A stretch of DNA of 64,000 bases from Halobacterium sp. CBA1132 (GTDB lineage: Archaea > Halobacteriota > Halobacteria > Halobacteriales > Halobacteriaceae), in the NCBI RefSeq assembly GCF_001485535.1, contig NZ_BCMZ01000001.1, positions 2,480,001-2,544,000 of the forward strand. Direction: 5' to 3'. A model generated the notes under the pieces. It saw nothing but the letters and a program-made list of their open reading frames with translations. It was not told the DNA's origin and did no database searches. How positions within the stretch are numbered: the stretch's first letter is position 1; each line of letters opens with the position of its first letter. Positions 16,489-51,620 of the stretch are shown here, piece by piece. The position numbers and the translations under genes were made by a program.

Positions 16489-16994
16489 AGCTGGTCGCGG
16501 GCAGCGTGGTCGTCGAGGACGTCGAGGTGTTCGTCGCGGCCCTGCCGGAGGGCGGCCCCGAGACCGTCGTGCAGGCGTTCGACGCGGCGTACGTCGCGGA
16601 CCGCGAGCATCTCGCGGCGGCGGTCGAGCACGCCGACCGCGCGTTCGACCGCGGCGAGAACGTCGCCAGCGACCGGTCGGTCGAAGTCCTGCTGTACGCG
16701 GCGGGCCGCCGGCAGATTCGGGAGGCGCTCGAAATGGGCGTCGACGAGGGCGAGCAGGCGGTCGTGGTCGTTGTCGCGGGCGGCGACGAGGACAGCGCGG
16801 CGGCGGCAGTCGCGGCGTTCCTCGACGGCGGGCGAGTGCTGGCGGCCGACGAGCCGAGCGGAGCGGGCGTCTACGGCGACCGCGAGACGATTCGGGAGTT
16901 CTTCGACGTGAGCGACGCCGAACTGGACGCGGCCGCGGGCGACCTCGCGGGCGTCGTGCGGGAGCGCGTGACGCTGCTGGACGTCGAGAAGTAG
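16485..16994 (+). CDS. cgi121: KEOPS complex subunit Cgi121
   Basis: This 169-residue protein resembles Cgi121, the KEOPS subunit that recruits tRNA for formation of N6-threonylcarbamoyladenosine at position 37. The start is a GTG at 16485-16487 that overlaps the helicase stop. The two-lobed alpha/beta pattern and the region [13 protein letters not shown] ... [27 protein letters not shown] are the family core, although no catalytic residues exist to check. Placement right after hel308 is a known haloarchaeal arrangement. The overlap argues for translational coupling. Confidence 0.85.
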
Positions 16995-17036
16995 GCGGCC
17001 AGCACGCATTTGCCGGGCGCGTCGAACCACCTAGGT

Positions 17037-17414
17037 ATGAGCGACGACAGCGACGACTTCGTGCCCGAGGAGTCGACCGAGGAGTTCCCCAGCGAGCACG
17101 AGCGCCCGCAGGCCGAGCACGTCGAGGAGACGCTGACGGCGATGGAGGCCGCGGTGCAGGGGTCGAGCTATCCGACGAACGCCAGCGACCTGCGCGCGGC
17201 GTACGCGACCGAGCGCGACGAGGTCGTCAACGAGACGGAGGCGCTGGCGGACGTCTTCGACCGGCTGGTGCCCGAGGAGTACGACACCCCGGAGGACGCC
17301 CGCGAGGCGATTCTCGGGGAGTTGACGGGGCGCGCGGGCATCGAACGCGGCGACCTCGCCGAATACAACCCCGAGCGCGAACTCGACGCGATGGACCTCG
17401 TCGAGGACGAGTGA
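17037..17414 (+). CDS. Acidic haloarchaeal protein of unknown function (DUF5789-like)
   Basis: This 125-residue, strongly acidic protein starts MSDDSDDFVPEEST. Its core is mainly helical, with VEETLTAMEAAVQGSSYPTNASDL and LVPEEYDTPEDAREAILGEL. The YPTNASDL turn resembles small haloarchaeal DUF5789 proteins, but I cannot confirm the family without a search. It follows cgi121 after 42 bases on the same strand. No membrane segment, signal or metal site is visible. Confidence 0.75.
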   Translation: MSDDSDDFVPEESTEEFPSEHERPQAEHVEETLTAMEAAVQGSSYPTNASDLRAAYATERDEVVNETEALADVFDRLVPEEYDTPEDAREAILGELTGRAGIERGDLAEYNPERELDAMDLVEDE

Positions 17415-17430
17415 GACGGTACCACACCCC

Positions 17431-17461
17431 GTTCCAGTCGAAACGGAGGGGTCGGGGGTGG
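17431..17461 (+). promoter_or_regulatory. ORB-like sequence (origin recognition box) outside the origin
   Basis: gttccagtcgaaacggaggg followed by gtcgggggtgg closely matches the boxes of the origin at 43179-43206 and 43398-43426, including the G-tract after the core. It lies in a gap with no gene on the plus side (17415-17588). A shortened copy, tttccagtcgaaacg, lies at 17532-17546 in the same orientation. Either may bind an Orc1/Cdc6 protein. Confidence 0.55.
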
Positions 17462-17531
17462 CCGCTGCCCCGCGATTATCCCGTCGAGAAGGTGGTATCG
17501 GGGTCGTCGCGGGTGGAAGTTGTCAGTCGGT

Positions 17532-17546
17532 TTTCCAGTCGAAACG
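17532..17546 (+). promoter_or_regulatory. Half ORB-like site
   Basis: tttccagtcgaaacg repeats the first half of the ORB-like box about 100 bases upstream but lacks the following G-tract. Confidence 0.35.
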
Positions 17547-17588
17547 TCGCCCGCGAGGAGCATGCGCTCGTCAGACGCACGGCGGTCG

Positions 17589-17723
17589 TCACTGCCGCAG
17601 GTCGCGTCTGTCGTAGTGGCGCTGGCAACTCCGACAGTAGTAGCGGCCGTCGCGCTGCCGGCGCAGTCGCGTGTGGCCGCGCGGGCACTTGACGCGCCAG
17701 CCAGCGTCCGAGGGATGGTCCAT
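17589..17723 (-). CDS. Small zinc-finger protein (44 residues)
   Basis: Reading from the ATG at 17721-17723 gives 44 residues with KCPRGHTRL and YYCRSCQRHYD, i.e. one CxxxH plus one CxxC half-site able to hold one zinc ion. It ends in TGA at 17589-17591. The protein is basic (many R), rare for a halophile, which suggests nucleic-acid binding (inference). Similar zinc-ribbon micro-proteins are frequent in haloarchaea. It is the next gene after the Yip1-like membrane protein on the same strand. Confidence 0.7.
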   Translation of the reverse strand: MDHPSDAGWRVKCPRGHTRLRRQRDGRYYCRSCQRHYDRRDLRQ

Positions 17724-17789
17724 CTACCGGCGTCAGACGAACGTCGCACACAAGAACGGGATCCTGCCGCACAGTGAAACTGAAAGTGG

Positions 17790-18536
17790 CTACGCGAGCG
17801 AGACGACGAACAGCAACACGGCGACGAGCGCGGACGCAGCGGCCGCGCTGCCCAGCGAGGTATCGTGGCCCTCGCGGAGGCCGTGCGTCCAGATGTACGC
17901 CTGCCACGCGGTGCCGACGAGCGCGCCGAGGACGCCGATTGCGCTGCCGGTCGTGTTGGTGAGCCGGCGGAGTTGGTCGGCCAGCAGCTCGGGGTCGCTG
18001 GCGAGGTCGACGCCCGAGAACAGGACGACGATTCCGACGATGCCGAAGGCGGACTGGACGAGCTGCGCGGGCATCGCCCAGCCGGTGACTGAGAGCGTCG
18101 CGGTGAACGAGCCGCGGCTGCCGGTGAACGCGCCGACCGCGTGCAGCGCGACGGCGACCAGCACCCAGCCGAGCAGCGTCGCGAAGAAGAGCACGGGAAC
18201 GCGCCGGTATATGGCGTCGCGGAGCTTCGCGCCGACCGAGACCTGCTTCGTCTGCGGTTCGTCGATGGTACACGGCTCGGGCGTCGAGACGTTCATCTCG
18301 GCGAAGCTCGCGCACTGCGACTGGGGCCACGGCTCCATCGTCGTGACCGTGACGGTGGCGTCGATTTGGCTGGCCATGTACTCGCCGACGGCGACGAACG
18401 CGATGGTCGTGAGAAAAGCGACAACGATAACGACGACTGCGGCGCCGCCGAGGGACCGCTCGGGCGGGTGCGTCTCGAAGAACGAGCCCGGGTGGAACAG
18501 CAGCGTCCGCAGGCCGTGGAGGGCGTCCCGAAGCAT
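17790..18536 (-). CDS. Yip1-family membrane protein
   Basis: This 248-residue integral membrane protein has about five hydrophobic segments (near residues 33-53, 121-143, 153-178, 199-217 and 226-245). An extracytoplasmic loop after the first segment contains three cysteines (QCASF, PCTID). The N-terminal LLFHPGSFFE motif and the overall pattern match the Yip1/YIP domain family, whose archaeal role is unknown. I chose the ATG at 18534-18536 (MLRDALHGLRTLLFHP). It is transcribed in the same direction as the permease at 18586-19803, 49 bases downstream of it. Confidence 0.75.
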   Translation of the reverse strand: MLRDALHGLRTLLFHPGSFFETHPPERSLGGAAVVVIVVAFLTTIAFVAVGEYMASQIDATVTVTTMEPWPQSQCASFAEMNVSTPEPCTIDEPQTKQVSVGAKLRDAIYRRVPVLFFATLLGWVLVAVALHAVGAFTGSRGSFTATLSVTGWAMPAQLVQSAFGIVGIVVLFSGVDLASDPELLADQLRRLTNTTGSAIGVLGALVGTAWQAYIWTHGLREGHDTSLGSAAAASALVAVLLFVVSLA

Positions 18537-18585
18537 GGGAGCGGATGGTTCGCCCACGGCGCGTTTCAACGTACCGGCTGTTCTC

Positions 18586-19803
18586 TCAGTGCGCGTGCGC
18601 GCTCTCCGCTTCGTCGGCGTCAGCGCCGTACATCAAGTACAGTTCCGCGAGGAACACGAGCGCGAACGCGGCGTTCAGGTACGTCGTGTACCCCGAGGGC
18701 GCGGTGCCGCCGACCTCGCCCTGCGCCGGCACGAGCCCGAGGCCGTGCCAGACGTAGTGGATAGTGATGCCGGAGACGACGGCGGTGACGAAGATGCCGA
18801 CGAACAGCACCGCCGCCATCCGCAGCCCGTAGTACCGCCGGTAGGCGTCGGTGATGGTCGGGACGATGAGGTCAGCGAAGATGAACGACATGACGCCGCC
18901 GAACGCGATGCCGTTGCTCCAGAGGATGACCGCGAACGGCACGTTCCCCACCGAGCAGACGAACGTCACGACGCCCACCGTGACGCCGATTATCGCGCTC
19001 GCGGCGACCCACGAGAACGACCCCTGCGCGCCGACGTCGAACAGCGTCGTCCACCACGCGCGCGGCACGAACGCGCCGATGAGCCCCGCGACGAGGAAGC
19101 CCGCGACGATGTCCGTCCACAGCATCTGCCACTCCCCGACCGCGTTCTTCGCGGCGAGGCGCCACCCGCGCTTCGTCGCGAGACTCGGGTGGCGCGACTC
19201 GCCGTGCTGTTCGTCTTCGTACGTGCGCTTGCAGGACTCCGAGCAGAAGTACTCGGTCCCGGAGTCGGTCTCCAGCGCGACGATGTCGTCGCTGGCCGGG
19301 TCGACGTCCATCCCGCAAACCGGGTCGCGCACGCCCTCCGCGGACTGGACGTGCTCGCGGGCGGCGGCGAACCACTCTCCCGGCACGACGTACTGGAAGA
19401 CGGCGGCGAGCAGGACGATGAGCAACAGGCCGGCGACGTAGTCCGCGAGCACGAACTCCCAGCCGAGCAGAATCCACATCACGAGCCCGAGTTCGATGAC
19501 GAGGTTCGTGGACGCGAACTGGAACGCCGCTAGACTCGCTATCGGTGACGCGCCCTTCTTGAAGAGGCTCTTCGTCGTCGCGACGGCGCCGAACGAGCAC
19601 GACGACGACGCCGCGCCGAACAGCGTGCCGAGCCCGAGTTCGCGCAGCCCGGACCCGCCGAGCACGCGGGACATCCGCTCCTCGCTGACGAACGTCTCGA
19701 CGGCGCCCGCGATGGTGAACCCCAGCACGAGCGCCCACCACGTCTCCCAGAACATCTCCCCGCCGAGTCGGAGTCCCTCCGCGAGCGTGTCGACGACGCT
19801 CAT
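18586..19803 (-). CDS. DUF318/UPF0718 permease with internal YHS metal-binding domain
   Basis: This 405-residue membrane protein has two halves, each about four transmembrane helices, with the repeated motif GTLFGAASSSCSFGA and FVCSVGNVPFA. Such Cys-containing repeats are typical of the DUF318 permeases linked to arsenic or heavy-metal efflux. Between the halves (about residues 157-196) is a YHS domain, VRDPVCGMDVDP ... YFCSESCKRTYED, which binds metal ions. A His/Glu-rich end, ESAHAH, follows. Its substrate is probably a transition metal or metalloid, by inference. The start is the ATG at 19801-19803. Confidence 0.85.
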   Translation of the reverse strand: MSVVDTLAEGLRLGGEMFWETWWALVLGFTIAGAVETFVSEERMSRVLGGSGLRELGLGTLFGAASSSCSFGAVATTKSLFKKGASPIASLAAFQFASTNLVIELGLVMWILLGWEFVLADYVAGLLLIVLLAAVFQYVVPGEWFAAAREHVQSAEGVRDPVCGMDVDPASDDIVALETDSGTEYFCSESCKRTYEDEQHGESRHPSLATKRGWRLAAKNAVGEWQMLWTDIVAGFLVAGLIGAFVPRAWWTTLFDVGAQGSFSWVAASAIIGVTVGVVTFVCSVGNVPFAVILWSNGIAFGGVMSFIFADLIVPTITDAYRRYYGLRMAAVLFVGIFVTAVVSGITIHYVWHGLGLVPAQGEVGGTAPSGYTTYLNAAFALVFLAELYLMYGADADEAESAHAH

Positions 19804-20106: not shown

Positions 20107-20137
20107 AACGCTACGCGTCTCGCGTTCGCAGTAGAAG

Positions 20138-20210
20138 TAGTCCATCCTGGATTCGAACCAGGGTCGAAGCCCCCAGAAGGCTTCAGGATTGGCCGCTACC
20201 CCAATGGACT
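20138..20210 (-). tRNA. tRNA-Gln (anticodon CTG)
   Basis: On the minus strand, acceptor arms AGTCCAT and ATGGACT pair perfectly and are followed by discriminator A. The T-arm CCTGG-TTCGAAT-CCAGG and an anticodon stem AAGCC/GGCTT enclose loop TTCTGGG, reading CTG (glutamine). The D-arm is GGGT...ATCC. The gene is 73 bases, has no intron, and does not encode CCA. In haloarchaea this tRNA is charged first with glutamate and then amidated (established). Confidence 0.9.
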
Positions 20211-36764: not shown

Positions 36765-38420
36765 CTACGAGAACTTCCGGACCGTCACGTCAAGCGTGTC
36801 CAAGTCGAGGATGGGCGCGGTGGCGACGTCGGGGTCGATGTTGACCGACTTCTGGAACTCCGTCTGGTGTTGCCAGCACCCGGAGTTGACCATTCGGACG
36901 TTGTGGTAGCCGCCGACGCCGAGCTTGTGGACGTGGCCGGTGTGGAAGACGTCCGGGGCCTCGTCGATGACGAGGAAGTCCTCTTTCTCGGGGGCGACCC
37001 GGGTGCGGCCGCCGAACTGGGGGGCGACGTGGCGTTTCTTCAGGAGTTGCTCCATCGCCCGGTGGGGCGCGTCGTAGGAGATGTCGTCGCCGGGGTACTC
37101 GGCGATGATTTCGTCGATGGAGACGCCGTGGTACATGAGCACGTCGACGCCTTCGAGCGTGACCGTGGAGGGGTTGCCCGTGAACCGGGCGTCGTGAGCG
37201 CTCATGATGTCCCTGAGTTCCTCGTCGAAGGCCGGCTGGGGTTCCGCGAGGCGGACGGCGTCGTGGTTCCCGGGAATCATCACGATCTCCATGTCCCCGG
37301 GGACGTCTTTGAGATGTTCGGCGAACGTCTCGTACTGGTCGTAGATGTCGACGATGTCCAGTTCCTCGTCCTGGTCGGGGTAGACGCCGACGCCCTCGAC
37401 CATGTCGCCAGCGATGAGGAGGTACTCCACGGAGTCGGCTTCCTCGGTGTGGAGCCAGTCTGCGAACGCGCTCCACGCGTCGGCGGCGAACTCCTGGCTG
37501 CCGACGTGGACATCGGAGACGAGCGCGGCCTGCACGTGGCGGTCCGCCGTCGACGGGCGGTGCGTGCGCGGAATGTCCGGGAAGTGGAGGTCGTCCGCGA
37601 ACAGGATGCCGCCGTCGTCGGAGATGGTGCCCTCGACGGCGATGACTTCGTCCGTGAGGAGTTCGTCGACGTGGGCGGCGATGTCGCGGTCTTTCATCAC
37701 GAGCGTCGGGAAGACGCCGTTCGTGTCCTCGACTTCGACGAGCCAGTGGCCGCTGGCGGTCGAGCGGATGTCGTTGACCATGCCGACGACGGCGGCCTCG
37801 CTGCCGCCGGGCATCGAGTCGAGGGCGTCCGTCGGGCGGTGGTTGACACGCCCACGGAGCTTTTTCGAGAGGCGGTCGTAGCGGTCGCGGAACGTCGCGA
37901 CGAAGTCGGCGTACTCGCCGGTTCCGGTCGACTCGCCGGTGATGTCACCGTCGATTTCGACGCTTCGTTGAGAGTCGTCGCGGGCCTCGCGGCCGTCCCG
38001 TCGCCCCGCCGCATTCCGCCCTTCGTCCACCCCCATTGTTTCAACTGGAGGGGATGTCTCCGTCTGTGGAATATCGCGAGAAGAGTCTCCAGTCGAATTG
38101 TTGGTGGAGGTGGTCGGGTCGGTCCGGTCAGTCGTCTCGGCAGTGGTCGACGCGTTCGAGGTCTCCGCCGCATCCGTGGGAGCGGTCGGGTCCTGGGAAT
38201 CTGCCCCGTCCGCAGGAGTACTCGGCGCCGCGCCGTCGAGCACCCCGCGAACGTGGTCAGTGGTTAGCGTCAGCGCGTCGTCGGGCGCGGCGTCGACCGC
38301 GCGCTCGACCGCGGCAGCGGGGTCGCTCGCCCGCGCGAGCAGCGTCACGGCCTCGCGCTCCGCGTTGTACCCCCGGCTGGTGAGCTCGCGGACGACCCGG
38401 ACCGGAGGTTCTCGTGGCAC
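36765..38420 (-). CDS. polB: DNA polymerase D small subunit (DP1), 3'-5' exonuclease
   Basis: This 551-residue protein is the exonuclease subunit of the archaeal replicative polymerase PolD. The start is a GTG (38418-38420) giving the conserved PREPPVRVVRELTSRGYNAEREAV. After an OB fold come the calcineurin-like nuclease motifs: LVSDVHVGSQ, IAGDMVEGVG, IPGNHDAVR, LMYHGVSIDE and FHTGHVHKLG, with all metal ligands present. A long S/T/D/E linker (about 65-170) precedes the core. The gene lies 4 kb from the orc1/oriC region. Confidence 0.96.
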   Translation of the reverse strand: MPREPPVRVVRELTSRGYNAEREAVTLLARASDPAAAVERAVDAAPDDALTLTTDHVRGVLDGAAPSTPADGADSQDPTAPTDAAETSNASTTAETTDRTDPTTSTNNSTGDSSRDIPQTETSPPVETMGVDEGRNAAGRRDGREARDDSQRSVEIDGDITGESTGTGEYADFVATFRDRYDRLSKKLRGRVNHRPTDALDSMPGGSEAAVVGMVNDIRSTASGHWLVEVEDTNGVFPTLVMKDRDIAAHVDELLTDEVIAVEGTISDDGGILFADDLHFPDIPRTHRPSTADRHVQAALVSDVHVGSQEFAADAWSAFADWLHTEEADSVEYLLIAGDMVEGVGVYPDQDEELDIVDIYDQYETFAEHLKDVPGDMEIVMIPGNHDAVRLAEPQPAFDEELRDIMSAHDARFTGNPSTVTLEGVDVLMYHGVSIDEIIAEYPGDDISYDAPHRAMEQLLKKRHVAPQFGGRTRVAPEKEDFLVIDEAPDVFHTGHVHKLGVGGYHNVRMVNSGCWQHQTEFQKSVNIDPDVATAPILDLDTLDVTVRKFS

Positions 38421-38505
38421 ACCACGTCAGCACGGCGAGCGCGAGCAAAAGCATGGCGGTCCGCGAGGGGAAAGTTGAAACACCGGACCAGCGAACTCCG
38501 AGTAG

Positions 38506-41150: not shown

Positions 41151-42644
41151 TCAGTTGTCGAAGCGCGCCTGCACGAACGGCGTGACGTTCTCGATGTCGC
41201 TGAGCCGGGAGTCGGCTTCGAGGACGGCCTCGGTCTCCTCGACGGGCACCGACAGCGAGATTTCCTTCGTGCGGCCGTACCGGCCCTTCGAGACGACGAC
41301 GGCGTTCACGATGCCGAGCATGTCCAGTTCGCTGATGAGGTCGGTGACGCGGCGCTGCGTGAGCACGTCCGCGTCCAACTCGTCGCAGAGCGTCTTGTAG
41401 ATGTTGTAGACCTCGCCCGTGTTCACGTTGTGGACGCCGTTGTCTTCGAGGAGGAGGATGGCGTACAGGACGAGTTTGGACTGTGTGGGGAGCGTGCGCA
41501 CGACCTCGACCACGCGGTCGAGTTCGATCTTGTCCTGCGCGCGCCGCACGTTCGCCTCGGTGACCGAGTCAGACTGGTCGCGCTCGGCGAGTTCGCCGGC
41601 GGTCCGGAGGAGGTCGAGCGCGCGCCGTGCGTCCCCGTGCTCTTGGGCAGCGAACGCCGCGCACAGCGGAATGACGTCCTCGGAGAGCGCGTCCTGCTTG
41701 AACGCCACCTCCGAGCGGTGCTGGAGGATGTCGCGGAGTTGGTTGGCGTCGTACGGCGGGAAGACGATTTCCTCCTCGCCCAGCGAGGATTTGACGCGCG
41801 GGTCGAGGAAGTCCGTGAACTTCAGGTCGTTGCTGATGCCGATGATGGAGACGCGGGAGTTCTCCAACTCGGAGTTCATCCGTGAGAGATTGTAGAGCGT
41901 GTCGTCGCCGGACTTCTCGACGAGTTTGTCGATTTCGTCGAGCATGATGACCGCGACGCGCTCGACGTAGTCGACGGCCTCGAAGAAGCGCGCGTACACG
42001 CGGTCGGTCGGCCACCCAGTCATCGGGACGTCGTCCATTTCTGACTTCTCTTCGAGCAGCGCTTCGATGCGCTCGTCGACGGCTTCTACGGAGTCGAAGT
42101 CGAGGTGGTCGTCGTTGTCGTCGTCGGATTCGAGGGCGCTCGGGTTGTCCTCAGCGGCCTCCCGGAGTTCCTCCAGTTCCTCGACGCGCTGATCGATGAA
42201 CTCGCGGTTCTGCTCGATGAACGTGTTCGCGAGCTGCGCGAGCACGCGGTACTGGGTGTCCGTGACCTCGCAGTTGATGTACTCGACCTCGCAGGGGACG
42301 CTGTACTTCTGGGAGGTCTTCTCGAGTTCCTGGCTGACGAACTTCGCGCTCGCGGTCTTCCCAGTCCCAGTCTTCCCGTAGATGAGGATGTTCGACGGCG
42401 TCTCGCCGCGCAGCGCGGCGACGAGAATCGTCGCCATGTTGTTGATTTGGTCTTTGCGGTGGGGGAGTTCGTGCGGCGTGTACGACGGCCGCAGCACTTC
42501 CTTGTTCTCGAAGATGGGTTCGCCGCTGAGCAAGTCGTCGAACAGTCCCTCGTCGCCGTCCTCGTCTTCGAGGACGTCGTCGAGGTCCACCTCGAAGTCC
42601 CGGTCGGCGGTGCGTCGGCCGTCCGTCGTCGGTTCGTCAGACAT
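41151..42644 (-). CDS. orc1: Orc1/Cdc6 replication initiator
   Basis: This 497-residue AAA+ protein binds origin recognition boxes and loads the MCM helicase. Walker A GKTGTGKT is at 90-97 and Walker B VAVIMLDEID at 230-239. A long acidic insertion (about 150-205) and a winged-helix DNA-binding domain at the end (about 400-497, with LTQRRVTDLISELDMLGIVNAVVVSKGRYGRTK) complete it. I chose the ATG at 42642-42644 (MSDEPTTDGR). An ORB-like box at 42655-42675 starts just 11 bases upstream, so Orc1 probably controls its own gene. The origin lies upstream. Confidence 0.96.
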   Translation of the reverse strand: MSDEPTTDGRRTADRDFEVDLDDVLEDEDGDEGLFDDLLSGEPIFENKEVLRPSYTPHELPHRKDQINNMATILVAALRGETPSNILIYGKTGTGKTASAKFVSQELEKTSQKYSVPCEVEYINCEVTDTQYRVLAQLANTFIEQNREFIDQRVEELEELREAAEDNPSALESDDDNDDHLDFDSVEAVDERIEALLEEKSEMDDVPMTGWPTDRVYARFFEAVDYVERVAVIMLDEIDKLVEKSGDDTLYNLSRMNSELENSRVSIIGISNDLKFTDFLDPRVKSSLGEEEIVFPPYDANQLRDILQHRSEVAFKQDALSEDVIPLCAAFAAQEHGDARRALDLLRTAGELAERDQSDSVTEANVRRAQDKIELDRVVEVVRTLPTQSKLVLYAILLLEDNGVHNVNTGEVYNIYKTLCDELDADVLTQRRVTDLISELDMLGIVNAVVVSKGRYGRTKEISLSVPVEETEAVLEADSRLSDIENVTPFVQARFDN

Positions 42645-42654
42645 GATTTGCGGT

Positions 42655-42675
42655 GCCCCTTCGTTTCGTGTGGAG
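42655..42675 (-). promoter_or_regulatory. ORB-like box at the orc1 start
   Basis: On the minus strand the box reads ctccacacgaaacgaagggg, close to the main boxes except for one changed base in the first half. It lies immediately before the orc1 start codon. Confidence 0.6.
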
Positions 42676-43178
42676 AGCGCCGCGCGGAGAGAGGAAGCCA
42701 CAGACCGGCGCGAACGGGGCGTTCGAGGCGGTTCAGTGACCGGGCGCTCCAGTTGATGCAGATGAACTAATGGAAACGAGAGGGACTAATAAGTTTCGAT
42801 GGGGTCGAGCGAATGACGAAGTATCGAACACTGAATCGGTGGTGTCGAGCCCGAGAGTGAGAAAGTGACCGAGATGGTCGAATGGGAGGACACCACCGCT
42901 TGGAGATTGAAATTGGAGATTAGAGCTCGGAGATTGGGGTTCGCTCGGGCCACGTCGAGGAGAGTGTCGGAAACTCCTCGGACCGTGTTCGGGGACGAGG
43001 TCGGAGGTCGGGCATGGAGGTCCGGCATGGACGCCGCGGAGGGGAGTGTTTCGGGTGCGTGGTTCAGACTCACACTGAGTCTCGCGGGAGCGAACGAGCG
43101 GATCGAAGGGGTGGCTGAGGGGTGGTGGGAAGGAGTTGCATCCGAAACAGGGGGGTTGGGATGGGGGACAGGGGTCCG

Positions 43179-43206
43179 CCCCCCACCCCTTCGTTTCGAG
43201 TGGAAC
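43179..43206 (-). promoter_or_regulatory. Origin recognition box, minus orientation
   Basis: On the minus strand this box reads gttccactcgaaacgaaggg followed by gtgggggg. It is the inverted partner of the box at 43398-43426, and the two enclose the AT-rich core. Confidence 0.8.
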
Positions 43207-43397: not shown

Positions 43398-43426
43398 GTT
43401 TCCACTCGAAACGAAGGGGTGGGGGC
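43398..43426 (+). promoter_or_regulatory. Origin recognition box, plus orientation
   Basis: gtttccactcgaaacgaagg followed by ggtgggggc has the same core, tccactcgaaacgaaggggt, as the minus-strand box at 43179-43206. Confidence 0.8.
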
Positions 43427-50600: not shown

Positions 50601-51620
50601 TCACAGTAGCGTTGCGTCTTCGGGGCGGAACCCGAGCACTGCGTCTCCCGTCGGCGGCTCGTCCCGGGTCTTCACGAGCACTTCCCTCCCGTCCCAGTCG
50701 CAGTGCGCGCGGTAGGCGTCGCCGAGGAACTCCACGCTCTGTACCCGCACCCCGAACTGATTCTGTTCGCAGTCGAAGTGGAGGGACTCTGGGCGGACAC
50801 AGACCGTCGCTCGTCCGTCGAAGCGTTTCCCAACGTCGAGCTCCGTCTCGCCCACGCGGACCGAACACCCCTCCGTTTCGACTGGAGGTTTCCCGTCGAA
50901 GACGTTGTTGTCGCCGACGAACTCCGCGACGAACCGCGACGCCGGCTCTCGGTAGACCTCTTCCGGCGTCCCCACTTGCTCGACGCGGCCCGCGTTCAAC
51001 ACGGCGACGCGGTCCGAAATCGCCAGCGCCTCACTCTGGTCGTGCGTGACGTAGACGGTCGTAATCGACAACTCCGACTGAATCTGTTTGACCTGCACGC
51101 GGAGGCGCTCCCGGAGGCGGGCGTCCAGCGCGCTCATCGGCTCGTCCAGCAGGAGGACGTCCGGCTCCGGCGCGAGCGCGCGAGCCAGCGCCACGCGTTG
51201 CTGTTGGCCGCCCGAAAGTTCCCCGGGGTCGCGGTCGCCGAACTCCGCCAAGTCCACGAGTTCCAGTAGCTCCGCGACGCGCTCGTCGGTCGTCTGCCCC
51301 GCGGGCGGGTCGCGGAACCGGAGGCCGTACGCGACGTTCTCCGCGACGGTCATGTGCGGGAACAGCGCGTAGCTCTGGAAGACGATGCCGACGTCGCGGT
51401 CCTCCGGCGGCGTGCCCGCCACGGAGTCGCCGCCGAAGCGCACGTCGCCGGCGTCCGGCTGCTCGAAGCCCGCAATCAGGCGCAGCGTCGTCGTCTTCCC
51501 GCACCCCGAGGGGCCGACGAGCGTGAAGAACTCGCCGTCCTCGACGGCCAGCGAGACGTCGTCGACGGCGGTCGTCGCGCCGAACTCGCGGGTCACGCCG
51601 TCCAGTTGGAGGCTCGTCAC
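50601..51620 (-). CDS. thiQ: ABC transporter ATPase, thiamine/spermidine/iron group
   Basis: This 339-residue ATPase has Walker A GPSGCGKTT (36-44), Q-loop FQSYALFPHMTVAENV, signature LSGGQQQR (135-142), Walker B LLLDEP (156-161) and a C-terminal TOBE domain (about 240-339), as in the MalK/PotA/ThiQ group. It is the last gene of a thiB-thiP-thiQ type operon. Its start overlaps the permease stop (ATGA, 51617-51620). An ORB-like sequence lies in its coding region at 50866-50887. Confidence 0.85.
   Translation of the reverse strand: MTSLQLDGVTREFGATTAVDDVSLAVEDGEFFTLVGPSGCGKTTTLRLIAGFEQPDAGDVRFGGDSVAGTPPEDRDVGIVFQSYALFPHMTVAENVAYGLRFRDPPAGQTTDERVAELLELVDLAEFGDRDPGELSGGQQQRVALARALAPEPDVLLLDEPMSALDARLRERLRVQVKQIQSELSITTVYVTHDQSEALAISDRVAVLNAGRVEQVGTPEEVYREPASRFVAEFVGDNNVFDGKPPVETEGCSVRVGETELDVGKRFDGRATVCVRPESLHFDCEQNQFGVRVQSVEFLGDAYRAHCDWDGREVLVKTRDEPPTGDAVLGFRPEDATLL
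50866..50887 (-). promoter_or_regulatory. ORB-like sequence inside the thiQ coding region
   Basis: On the minus strand it reads ctccagtcgaaacggagggg followed by tg; the 20-nt core tccagtcgaaacggaggggt is identical to the intergenic site at 17431-17461. The sequence encodes a loop in the TOBE domain, where codon choice is free, so a binding role is possible but chance cannot be excluded. Confidence 0.4.

What the first reader, a model, noticed from the sequence alone, without database searches (positions are those of the whole stretch)
17431..17546. ORB-like boxes 26 kb from the origin
A near-complete ORB with G-tract (17431-17461) and a half box (17532-17546) stand in the same orientation 100 bases apart in a small intergenic gap. 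There is no orc gene nearby. They could be sinks for Orc1, a relic of another origin, or a regulatory site for the zinc-finger or membrane genes.
Basis: partly seen in the sequence, partly recalled or inferred. Interest (0 to 1): 0.6.

Follow-up and report, generated by a model that had tools for sequence, protein, structure and literature searches.

The report
Orc1-box satellites flanking haloarchaeal oriC1
The two boxes are a real, evolutionarily conserved pair of likely binding sites for the protein that starts DNA replication; similar sites sit around the main replication origin of many salt-loving archaea, even inside a DNA-polymerase gene, and probably act as sinks that limit how often replication starts.

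Summary
In the 3.0-Mb genome only seven places match the ORB core with up to 3 mismatches (control 0), and 17432 is one of three perfect ones, the other two being the oriC1 pair. The direct pair (starts 101 bp apart) is conserved in 11 of 13 species of the genus (Halobacterium). Box 1 is present in all 13 and is the most conserved 21 bp of the locus, although neighbouring genes change. It lies between convergent genes and has no AT-rich element beside it, so it is unlikely to be a promoter site or an origin relic.

It belongs to a wider, apparently undescribed set of "satellite" ORBs around oriC1. In 30 other haloarchaeal genera an inverted ORB pair, usually exactly 57 bp apart, lies inside the DNA polymerase D small-subunit gene (19 of 30). 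Codon choice there is constrained as if the DNA, not the peptide, were selected. Box sites also recur 3' of hel308-cgi121 (9 of 29), the locus of this finding. Satellites mostly lack the extended G-string that oriC1 needs to fire.

Best reading: Orc1-binding sites that titrate the initiator near oriC1. Binding and titration are inferred, not shown.

The parts
17432..17452 (+). Site A box 1: ORB core plus GGGGT
   Evidence: 17 of 21 columns invariant in 13 Halobacterium genomes, best 21-bp window of the 840 ranked
17453..17461 (+). G-rich extension after box 1 (not conserved in congeners)
17533..17546 (+). Site A box 2: ORB core without G-tract
   Evidence: strict pair pattern in 11 of 13 genus genomes and in none of 379 others
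17547..17556 (+). conserved 3' extension of box 2
   Evidence: mean pairwise identity 0.78 against 0.40-0.58 in the spacer stretches between the boxes
38030..38050 (-). Site D: ORB box inside the DNA polymerase D small subunit gene
38087..38100 (+). degenerate partner box of site D, 57 bp from it, inverted
   Evidence: CTCCAGTCGAATTG, 3 mismatches; same 57-bp geometry as intact pairs in other genera
36768..38426 (-). open frame of DNA polymerase D small subunit (DP1) that carries site D
   Evidence: PF04042 E 2.8e-14; solved DP1 chains align only from residue 175 or 209 on
50867..50887 (-). Site B: ORB box inside an ABC-transporter ATPase gene
50601..51620 (-). ABC-transporter ATPase gene carrying site B
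   Evidence: PF00005 E 4.2e-36
43185..43205 (-). oriC1 ORB (left)
43400..43420 (+). oriC1 ORB (right)
42655..42675 (-). ORB-like box just upstream of the likely orc1 start codon
41154..42644 (-). orc1 of oriC1, likely MSDEP start (open frame to 42785)
   Evidence: PF09079 E 1.2e-33; frame

Best explanation
Site A (17432-17452 with 17533-17556) is a conserved non-origin binding element for the oriC1 initiator Orc1. It belongs to a set of satellite ORBs that surround oriC1 in haloarchaea: here site A at -26 kb, site D inside the DP1 gene at -5 kb and site B inside an ABC gene at +7.5 kb. Shown: the sequence, its conservation, DNA-level constraint on the coding sites, origin-proximal clustering, absence of an AT-rich element, and absence of the extended G-string at most satellites. 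Inferred: that Orc1 binds them, and that they act by titration. Because satellites close to oriC1 are copied soon after initiation, each round would double the sinks, lower free Orc1 and delay re-initiation, while lacking the G-string and unwinding element needed to fire. I put about 0.85 on 'DNA-level selected Orc1 sites' and about 0.5 on titration as their main action.
For: Chance excluded. Box 1 in 13 of 13 Halobacterium species; pair pattern in 11 of 13 and in 0 of 379 other genomes. Box 1 mean pairwise identity 0.954 against about 0.4-0.6 in most of its surroundings, although the 125-aa neighbour ORF was detected in only 6 of 13. DP1 in 30 genera chosen without regard to boxes: inverted pair in 19 of 30, 16 at exactly 57 bp; of 443 codon columns the three most over-conserved, and six of the top eight, are box codons, e.g. 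ACT 22 of 23 at usage 0.11 and GTT 21 of 21 at 0.12. Site B: the two most over-conserved of 315 columns are box codons. hel308-side box in 9 of 29 genera. In 12 genomes of other families 29 of 33 non-core boxes lie within 160 kb of oriC1, 3.3 expected. Extended G-string: 5.97 G of 8 at 94 origin boxes, 2.81 at 80 DP1 boxes. In H. hispanica, mutating either oriC1 G-string abolishes autonomous replication, and the ORB-rich oriC2D lowers oriC2 activity, which its authors attribute to Cdc6E titration (PMC3936714).
Against: No binding data: Orc1 binding rests on identity with origin ORBs. Each satellite locus here has one or two boxes, against 11 in oriC2D, so titration capacity per locus is small. 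The hel308-side site is absent from 20 of 29 genera. Some boxes lie far away (244-736 kb; sites C, E and F). Sites C and E lie near gene starts, so some satellites may regulate promoters. The 160-kb limit was chosen after seeing the data. In this genome site A has 6 G of 8 after the core, so the G-string contrast is weak here.
Confidence: 0.5

Rival explanations
1. Architectural role: Orc1 on satellite boxes bridges to oriC1 or to other satellites and shapes or segregates the origin region (like origin handcuffing or parS-type clustering).
For: Clustering around oriC1; fixed geometry (57-bp inverted pair, about 101-bp direct pair). In Halobacterium the A, B, C, E and F boxes examined all point their G-tract toward the origin.
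Against: The orientation rule fails outside the genus: beyond 8 kb it is 13 toward, 6 away. No bridging partner is known.
Confidence: 0.25
2. Intragenic and intergenic transcription control: Orc1 at the boxes represses or roadblocks neighbouring genes (DP1, the ABC gene, hel308-side genes).
For: Sites C and E lie just upstream of gene starts; a box lies just upstream of the likely orc1 start.
Against: Site A lies in a convergent gap and its neighbours change; B and D are deep inside genes.
Confidence: 0.15
3. Dormant or relic origins.
For: Boxes match origin ORBs; the DP1 pair has the same divergent arrangement as an origin pair.
Against: AT content of the most AT-rich 60 bp within 500 bp is 0.47-0.50 at A, B and D, against 0.65 at oriC1 and a random median of 0.47; satellites mostly lack the G-string essential at oriC1; no orc gene at site A.
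Confidence: 0.04
4. Chance or protein-level conservation (a short peptide motif in DP1 and the ABC protein).
For: The boxes do encode similar peptides (P-V-E-T-x-G).
Against: Control counts are 0; rare synonymous codons are fixed at box codons; the same box occurs in non-coding DNA.
Confidence: 0.01

Closest known systems
oriC2D of Haloarcula hispanica (Wu et al., PMC3936714; read abstract, sections 18 and 19, and part 1 of 21)
   Same: Cluster of initiator boxes outside the origin, without origin activity; its authors propose Cdc6E titration.
   Different: 11 ORBs in one 722-bp intergenic region directly downstream of cdc6E and serving oriC2; here one or two boxes per locus, spread over tens of kb around oriC1, some inside coding genes.
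E. coli datA/DARS loci (PMC4585315, start of abstract only) and B. subtilis DnaA-box clusters (recalled)
   Same: Non-origin initiator-box loci at conserved chromosomal places that tune initiation.
   Different: Different initiator (DnaA), other accessory proteins; no archaeal equivalent of DnaA inactivation or reactivation shown here.
Haloarchaeal oriC1 ORBs (PMC3528665, passages; PMC3936714, section 18)
   Same: Same core TTCCANNNGAAACGNAGGGGT.
   Different: Origin ORBs carry an extended G-string and flank an AT-rich element beside orc1; satellites mostly do not.

Membership tests
Haloarchaeal ORB (Orc1/Cdc6 box) | ORB core with GGGGT | tested here: met
   0 mismatches to TTCCASTSGAAACGNAGGGGT at 17432
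Haloarchaeal ORB (Orc1/Cdc6 box) | extended halophile G-string | tested here: inconclusive
   6 G of 8 in this genome, mean 4.0 of 8 in 13 congeners
Haloarchaeal ORB (Orc1/Cdc6 box) | bound by Orc1 | not testable with these tools
   no binding data
[quoted passage not shown]
   direct pair; highest AT in any 60 bp within 500 bp is 0.47, the random median
Replication origin | adjacent orc/cdc6 gene | tested here: not met
   nearest orc gene about 24 kb away
Initiator-titration locus (oriC2D/datA-like) | non-origin initiator boxes conserved in place | tested here: met
Initiator-titration locus (oriC2D/datA-like) | loss raises initiation, extra copies lower it | not testable with these tools
   needs genetics
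Promoter-regulatory site | lies upstream of a gene it controls | tested here: not met
   convergent gap at site A; B and D inside genes

The most novel reading that the evidence does not exclude
Haloarchaea carry an ancient, distributed initiator-control system: satellite Orc1 boxes fixed around oriC1, written partly into the coding sequence of the replicative polymerase's small subunit as a 57-bp inverted pair and kept by synonymous selection across the order. They count origin copies by titrating Orc1 after each firing: an archaeal counterpart of datA and DnaA-box clusters that is not tied to an orc-adjacent intergenic region.
Probability: 0.4. Interest if true: 0.85.

Novelty: new variant of a known kind. 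Interest (0 to 1): 0.68.

Why it matters
How archaea prevent re-initiation is largely open. Conserved non-origin initiator boxes, some inside a replicative polymerase gene, give exact and synonymously recodable targets to test whether archaea use initiator titration. The passages seen of the main haloarchaeal origin survey (PMC3528665) state that only intergenic regions flanking orc genes were searched, which would explain why such sites were missed. They also warn origin-finding programs that a good ORB is not an origin.

Tried and rejected
Orientation rule: in Halobacterium every A, B, C, E and F box examined points its G-tract toward oriC1, which suggested a polar function. In 12 genomes of other families it is 13 toward and 6 away beyond 8 kb, and the hel308-side box differs in orientation between families. 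Rejected as a rule.

RNA element at site A: no Rfam family at gathering threshold in 16900-18600. tRNA: only one in the window, at 20137-20210.

The direct 101-bp pair as a haloarchaeal feature: found only in the genus; elsewhere the hel308-side site is a single box or a different arrangement.

The sites of genus g6 and other family members were fetched (L074-L083, L102-L109) but not analysed beyond synteny of the first group: of L074-L083, hel308 was found only in L074 (G153) and L083 (G088).

A first codon count defined boxes by DNA match and was circular; it was replaced by the column test. An earlier count gave 20/30, 17 and "7 of top 9"; recounting the outputs gives 19/30, 16 and six of the top eight, used here. 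In one search a tenth locus (L305, 3 mismatches, no G-tract) was not counted among the nine. The 120 named loci were chosen by a perfect box and are not used for prevalence.

Full report
1. Box 1 (17432-17452, +) is TTCCAGTCGAAACGGAGGGGT; box 2 (17533-17546, +) is TTCCAGTCGAAACG without a G-tract; the starts are 101 bp apart. The window lies at C1:2480001-2544000 of a 3.01-Mb genome in four contigs. With up to 3 mismatches to TTCCASTSGAAACGNAGGGGT the genome has 7 matches and the reversed-pattern control none; dinucleotide shuffles of the window give 0.00 against 5 observed. Three are perfect: box 1 and the two oriC1 ORBs. Two have one mismatch: site B (window 50867-50887, -) and site C (C1:138461, -). 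The only orc gene of the window belongs to oriC1 (ORF 41154-42785, -).

2. The genus is Halobacterium: contigs of G001 and G009 match in length H. bonnevillei PCN9 (L115) and Halobacterium sp. CBA1126 (L177). All 13 genus genomes have such boxes with controls 0. At the hel308-cgi121 locus box 1 is present in 13 of 13; the strict pair pattern is found in 11 of 13 and in none of the other 379 genomes of the 392 searched in the order. Box 2 is degenerate in G006 and lost in G007. Box 1 has mean pairwise identity 0.954 with 17 of 21 invariant columns and is the best of the 21-bp windows ranked; the stretches between it and the lead-in to box 2 score 0.40-0.58. The 125-aa ORF upstream was detected in 6 of 13 genomes only, and the downstream gene differs in several. 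The element is kept while its neighbours change. In this genome it lies between convergent genes.

3. The same box inside genes. Site B lies in an ABC-transporter ATPase gene, in 13 of 13 species, in an otherwise variable linker. Among 315 codon columns the two most over-conserved are box codons: CCA 13 of 13 (usage 0.11) and GAA 13 of 13 (0.21). These species are related, so the ranking matters more than the p-values. Site D (38030-38050, -) lies in the DNA polymerase D small subunit DP1 (PF04042), in the stretch before the solved core, which aligns from residue 175 (or 209) on.

4. DP1 across the order. I chose 30 genomes, one per genus, from the handles, without reference to boxes; DP1 was found in all 30. 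An inverted pair of boxes was found in 19 of 30 loci, with spacing 57 bp in 16, 54 bp in 2 and 69 bp in 1. 28 of 30 open frames hold at least one box at 3 mismatches or fewer; L253 and L254 hold none. To avoid selecting by DNA match, I aligned the proteins and tested every column with at least 12 identical residues for over-use of one codon: 443 columns. The top three and six of the top eight are box codons: ACT 22/23 (usage 0.11), GTT 21/21 (0.12), CCA 21/23 (0.11), GGA 20/20 (0.15), GGG 22/24 (0.25) and GAA 24/26 (0.33). The other two of the eight are a GTG at residue 3, probably the start codon, and a serine AGC at residue 209. This points to DNA-level selection for an ORB pair written into a polymerase gene. 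Halobacterium keeps one good box and a degenerate partner at the same 57-bp distance (38087-38100).

5. The locus of the finding across the order. Hel308 was found in 29 of the same 30 genomes. Within 4 kb 3' of hel308, 9 of 29 have a box with 2 or fewer mismatches to YTCCASYYGAAACRRAGGGGK (7 with none); 20 do not. Family f17 (L301, L302) has the Halobacterium order hel308-cgi121-P0001-like ORF-box, followed by IMP cyclohydrolase. A scan of named genomes for the perfect box stopped at 120 stretches; by title all are haloarchaea except one Methanoperedens MAG (L187) and one "Euryarchaeota archaeon" MAG (L209). Of the first 80, 51 have no orc1 homologue in the stretch held. Those with hel308 or cgi121 include Halorubrum, Halorussus, Natrinema, Halopiger, Haladaptatus, Halovivax and Halobellus. 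That set was selected for boxes and says nothing about prevalence.

6. Clustering and orientation. In 12 genomes of other families, boxes with up to 1 mismatch number 66 (controls 0): 33 within 1 kb of the inverted oriC1-type pair, 29 at 1-160 kb, 4 farther; 3.3 of the 33 non-core sites would be expected within 160 kb if uniform. The limit was set after seeing the data, and in G107 the DP1 gene is 153 kb from the pair taken as origin. G-tracts of Halobacterium A, B, C, E and F boxes point to the origin, but elsewhere beyond 8 kb it is 13 toward and 6 away.

7. Satellites differ from origin boxes. In the 8 bases after the 21-bp core, which the search pattern does not constrain, 94 oriC1-type boxes have 5.97 G on average, 80 DP1 boxes 2.81, site B 2.77, the nine hel308-side boxes 2.89 and Halobacterium site A 4.00. 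In H. hispanica mutating either oriC1 G-string abolished autonomous replication (PMC3936714 section 18). No AT-rich element lies near A, B or D. So the satellites look able to bind but not to fire.

8. Mechanism. Shown: conservation, DNA-level constraint, clustering, no unwinding element, reduced G-string. Inferred: Orc1 binding, from identity with the oriC1 ORBs; PMC3528665 states that S. solfataricus Cdc6-1 was shown to recognise the Halobacterium NRC-1 oriC1 ORBs. Inferred further: titration. The nearest experimental precedent is oriC2D, 11 ORBs downstream of cdc6E, which could not be deleted while oriC2 was present and which lowers oriC2 activity, according to its authors likely by titrating Cdc6E (PMC3936714 section 19). 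Architectural roles and local gene control remain open; sites C and E lie close to gene starts.

9. Novelty. PMC3528665 collected only intergenic regions flanking orc/cdc6 genes (passages). Searches for ORB with titration, coding region, DNA polymerase D, ChIP-seq, and sites outside origins returned listings in which I saw no report of conserved ORBs inside DP1 or beside hel308; I did not read those papers in full, and subscription journals are not held. I class it as a new variant of a known kind: non-origin initiator boxes.

Noticed in passing
window 42655-42675 (-): ORB-like box CTCCACACGAAACGAAGGGGC about 11 bp upstream of the likely orc1 start codon (MSDEP...), with similar boxes beside the origin in several congeners; it could be an Orc1 autoregulatory site.
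   Followed up: partly
G000 C1:138461 (L059 4462-4482, -), also L056, L057, L058: Site C: conserved box between an LVIVD-repeat protein gene and the start of a NifU-like gene, about 200 kb from oriC1 in this genome; the gene names are by eye, not from a family search.
   Followed up: partly
L094-L097 (site E) and L098-L101 (site F): Weaker ORB-like sites 400-490 kb (E) and about 690 kb (F) from the origin, in conserved DNA; E lies close upstream of a gene start.
   Followed up: partly
window 17547-17560 and 17485-17500: Box 2 carries a conserved 3' extension (CGCCCGCG followed by GAGC-like bases), and an AAGGTGGT-like stretch lies between the boxes in most congeners: possible sites for a second protein.
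   Followed up: no
L187, 4419-4439 (+): A perfect match to the box pattern in a Candidatus Methanoperedens MAG contig, outside haloarchaea.
   Followed up: no
L075-L082 (genera g5 and g6): Isolated boxes in sister genera at places with no hel308, P0001 or ABC homologue in the stretch held; loci not identified.
   Followed up: no
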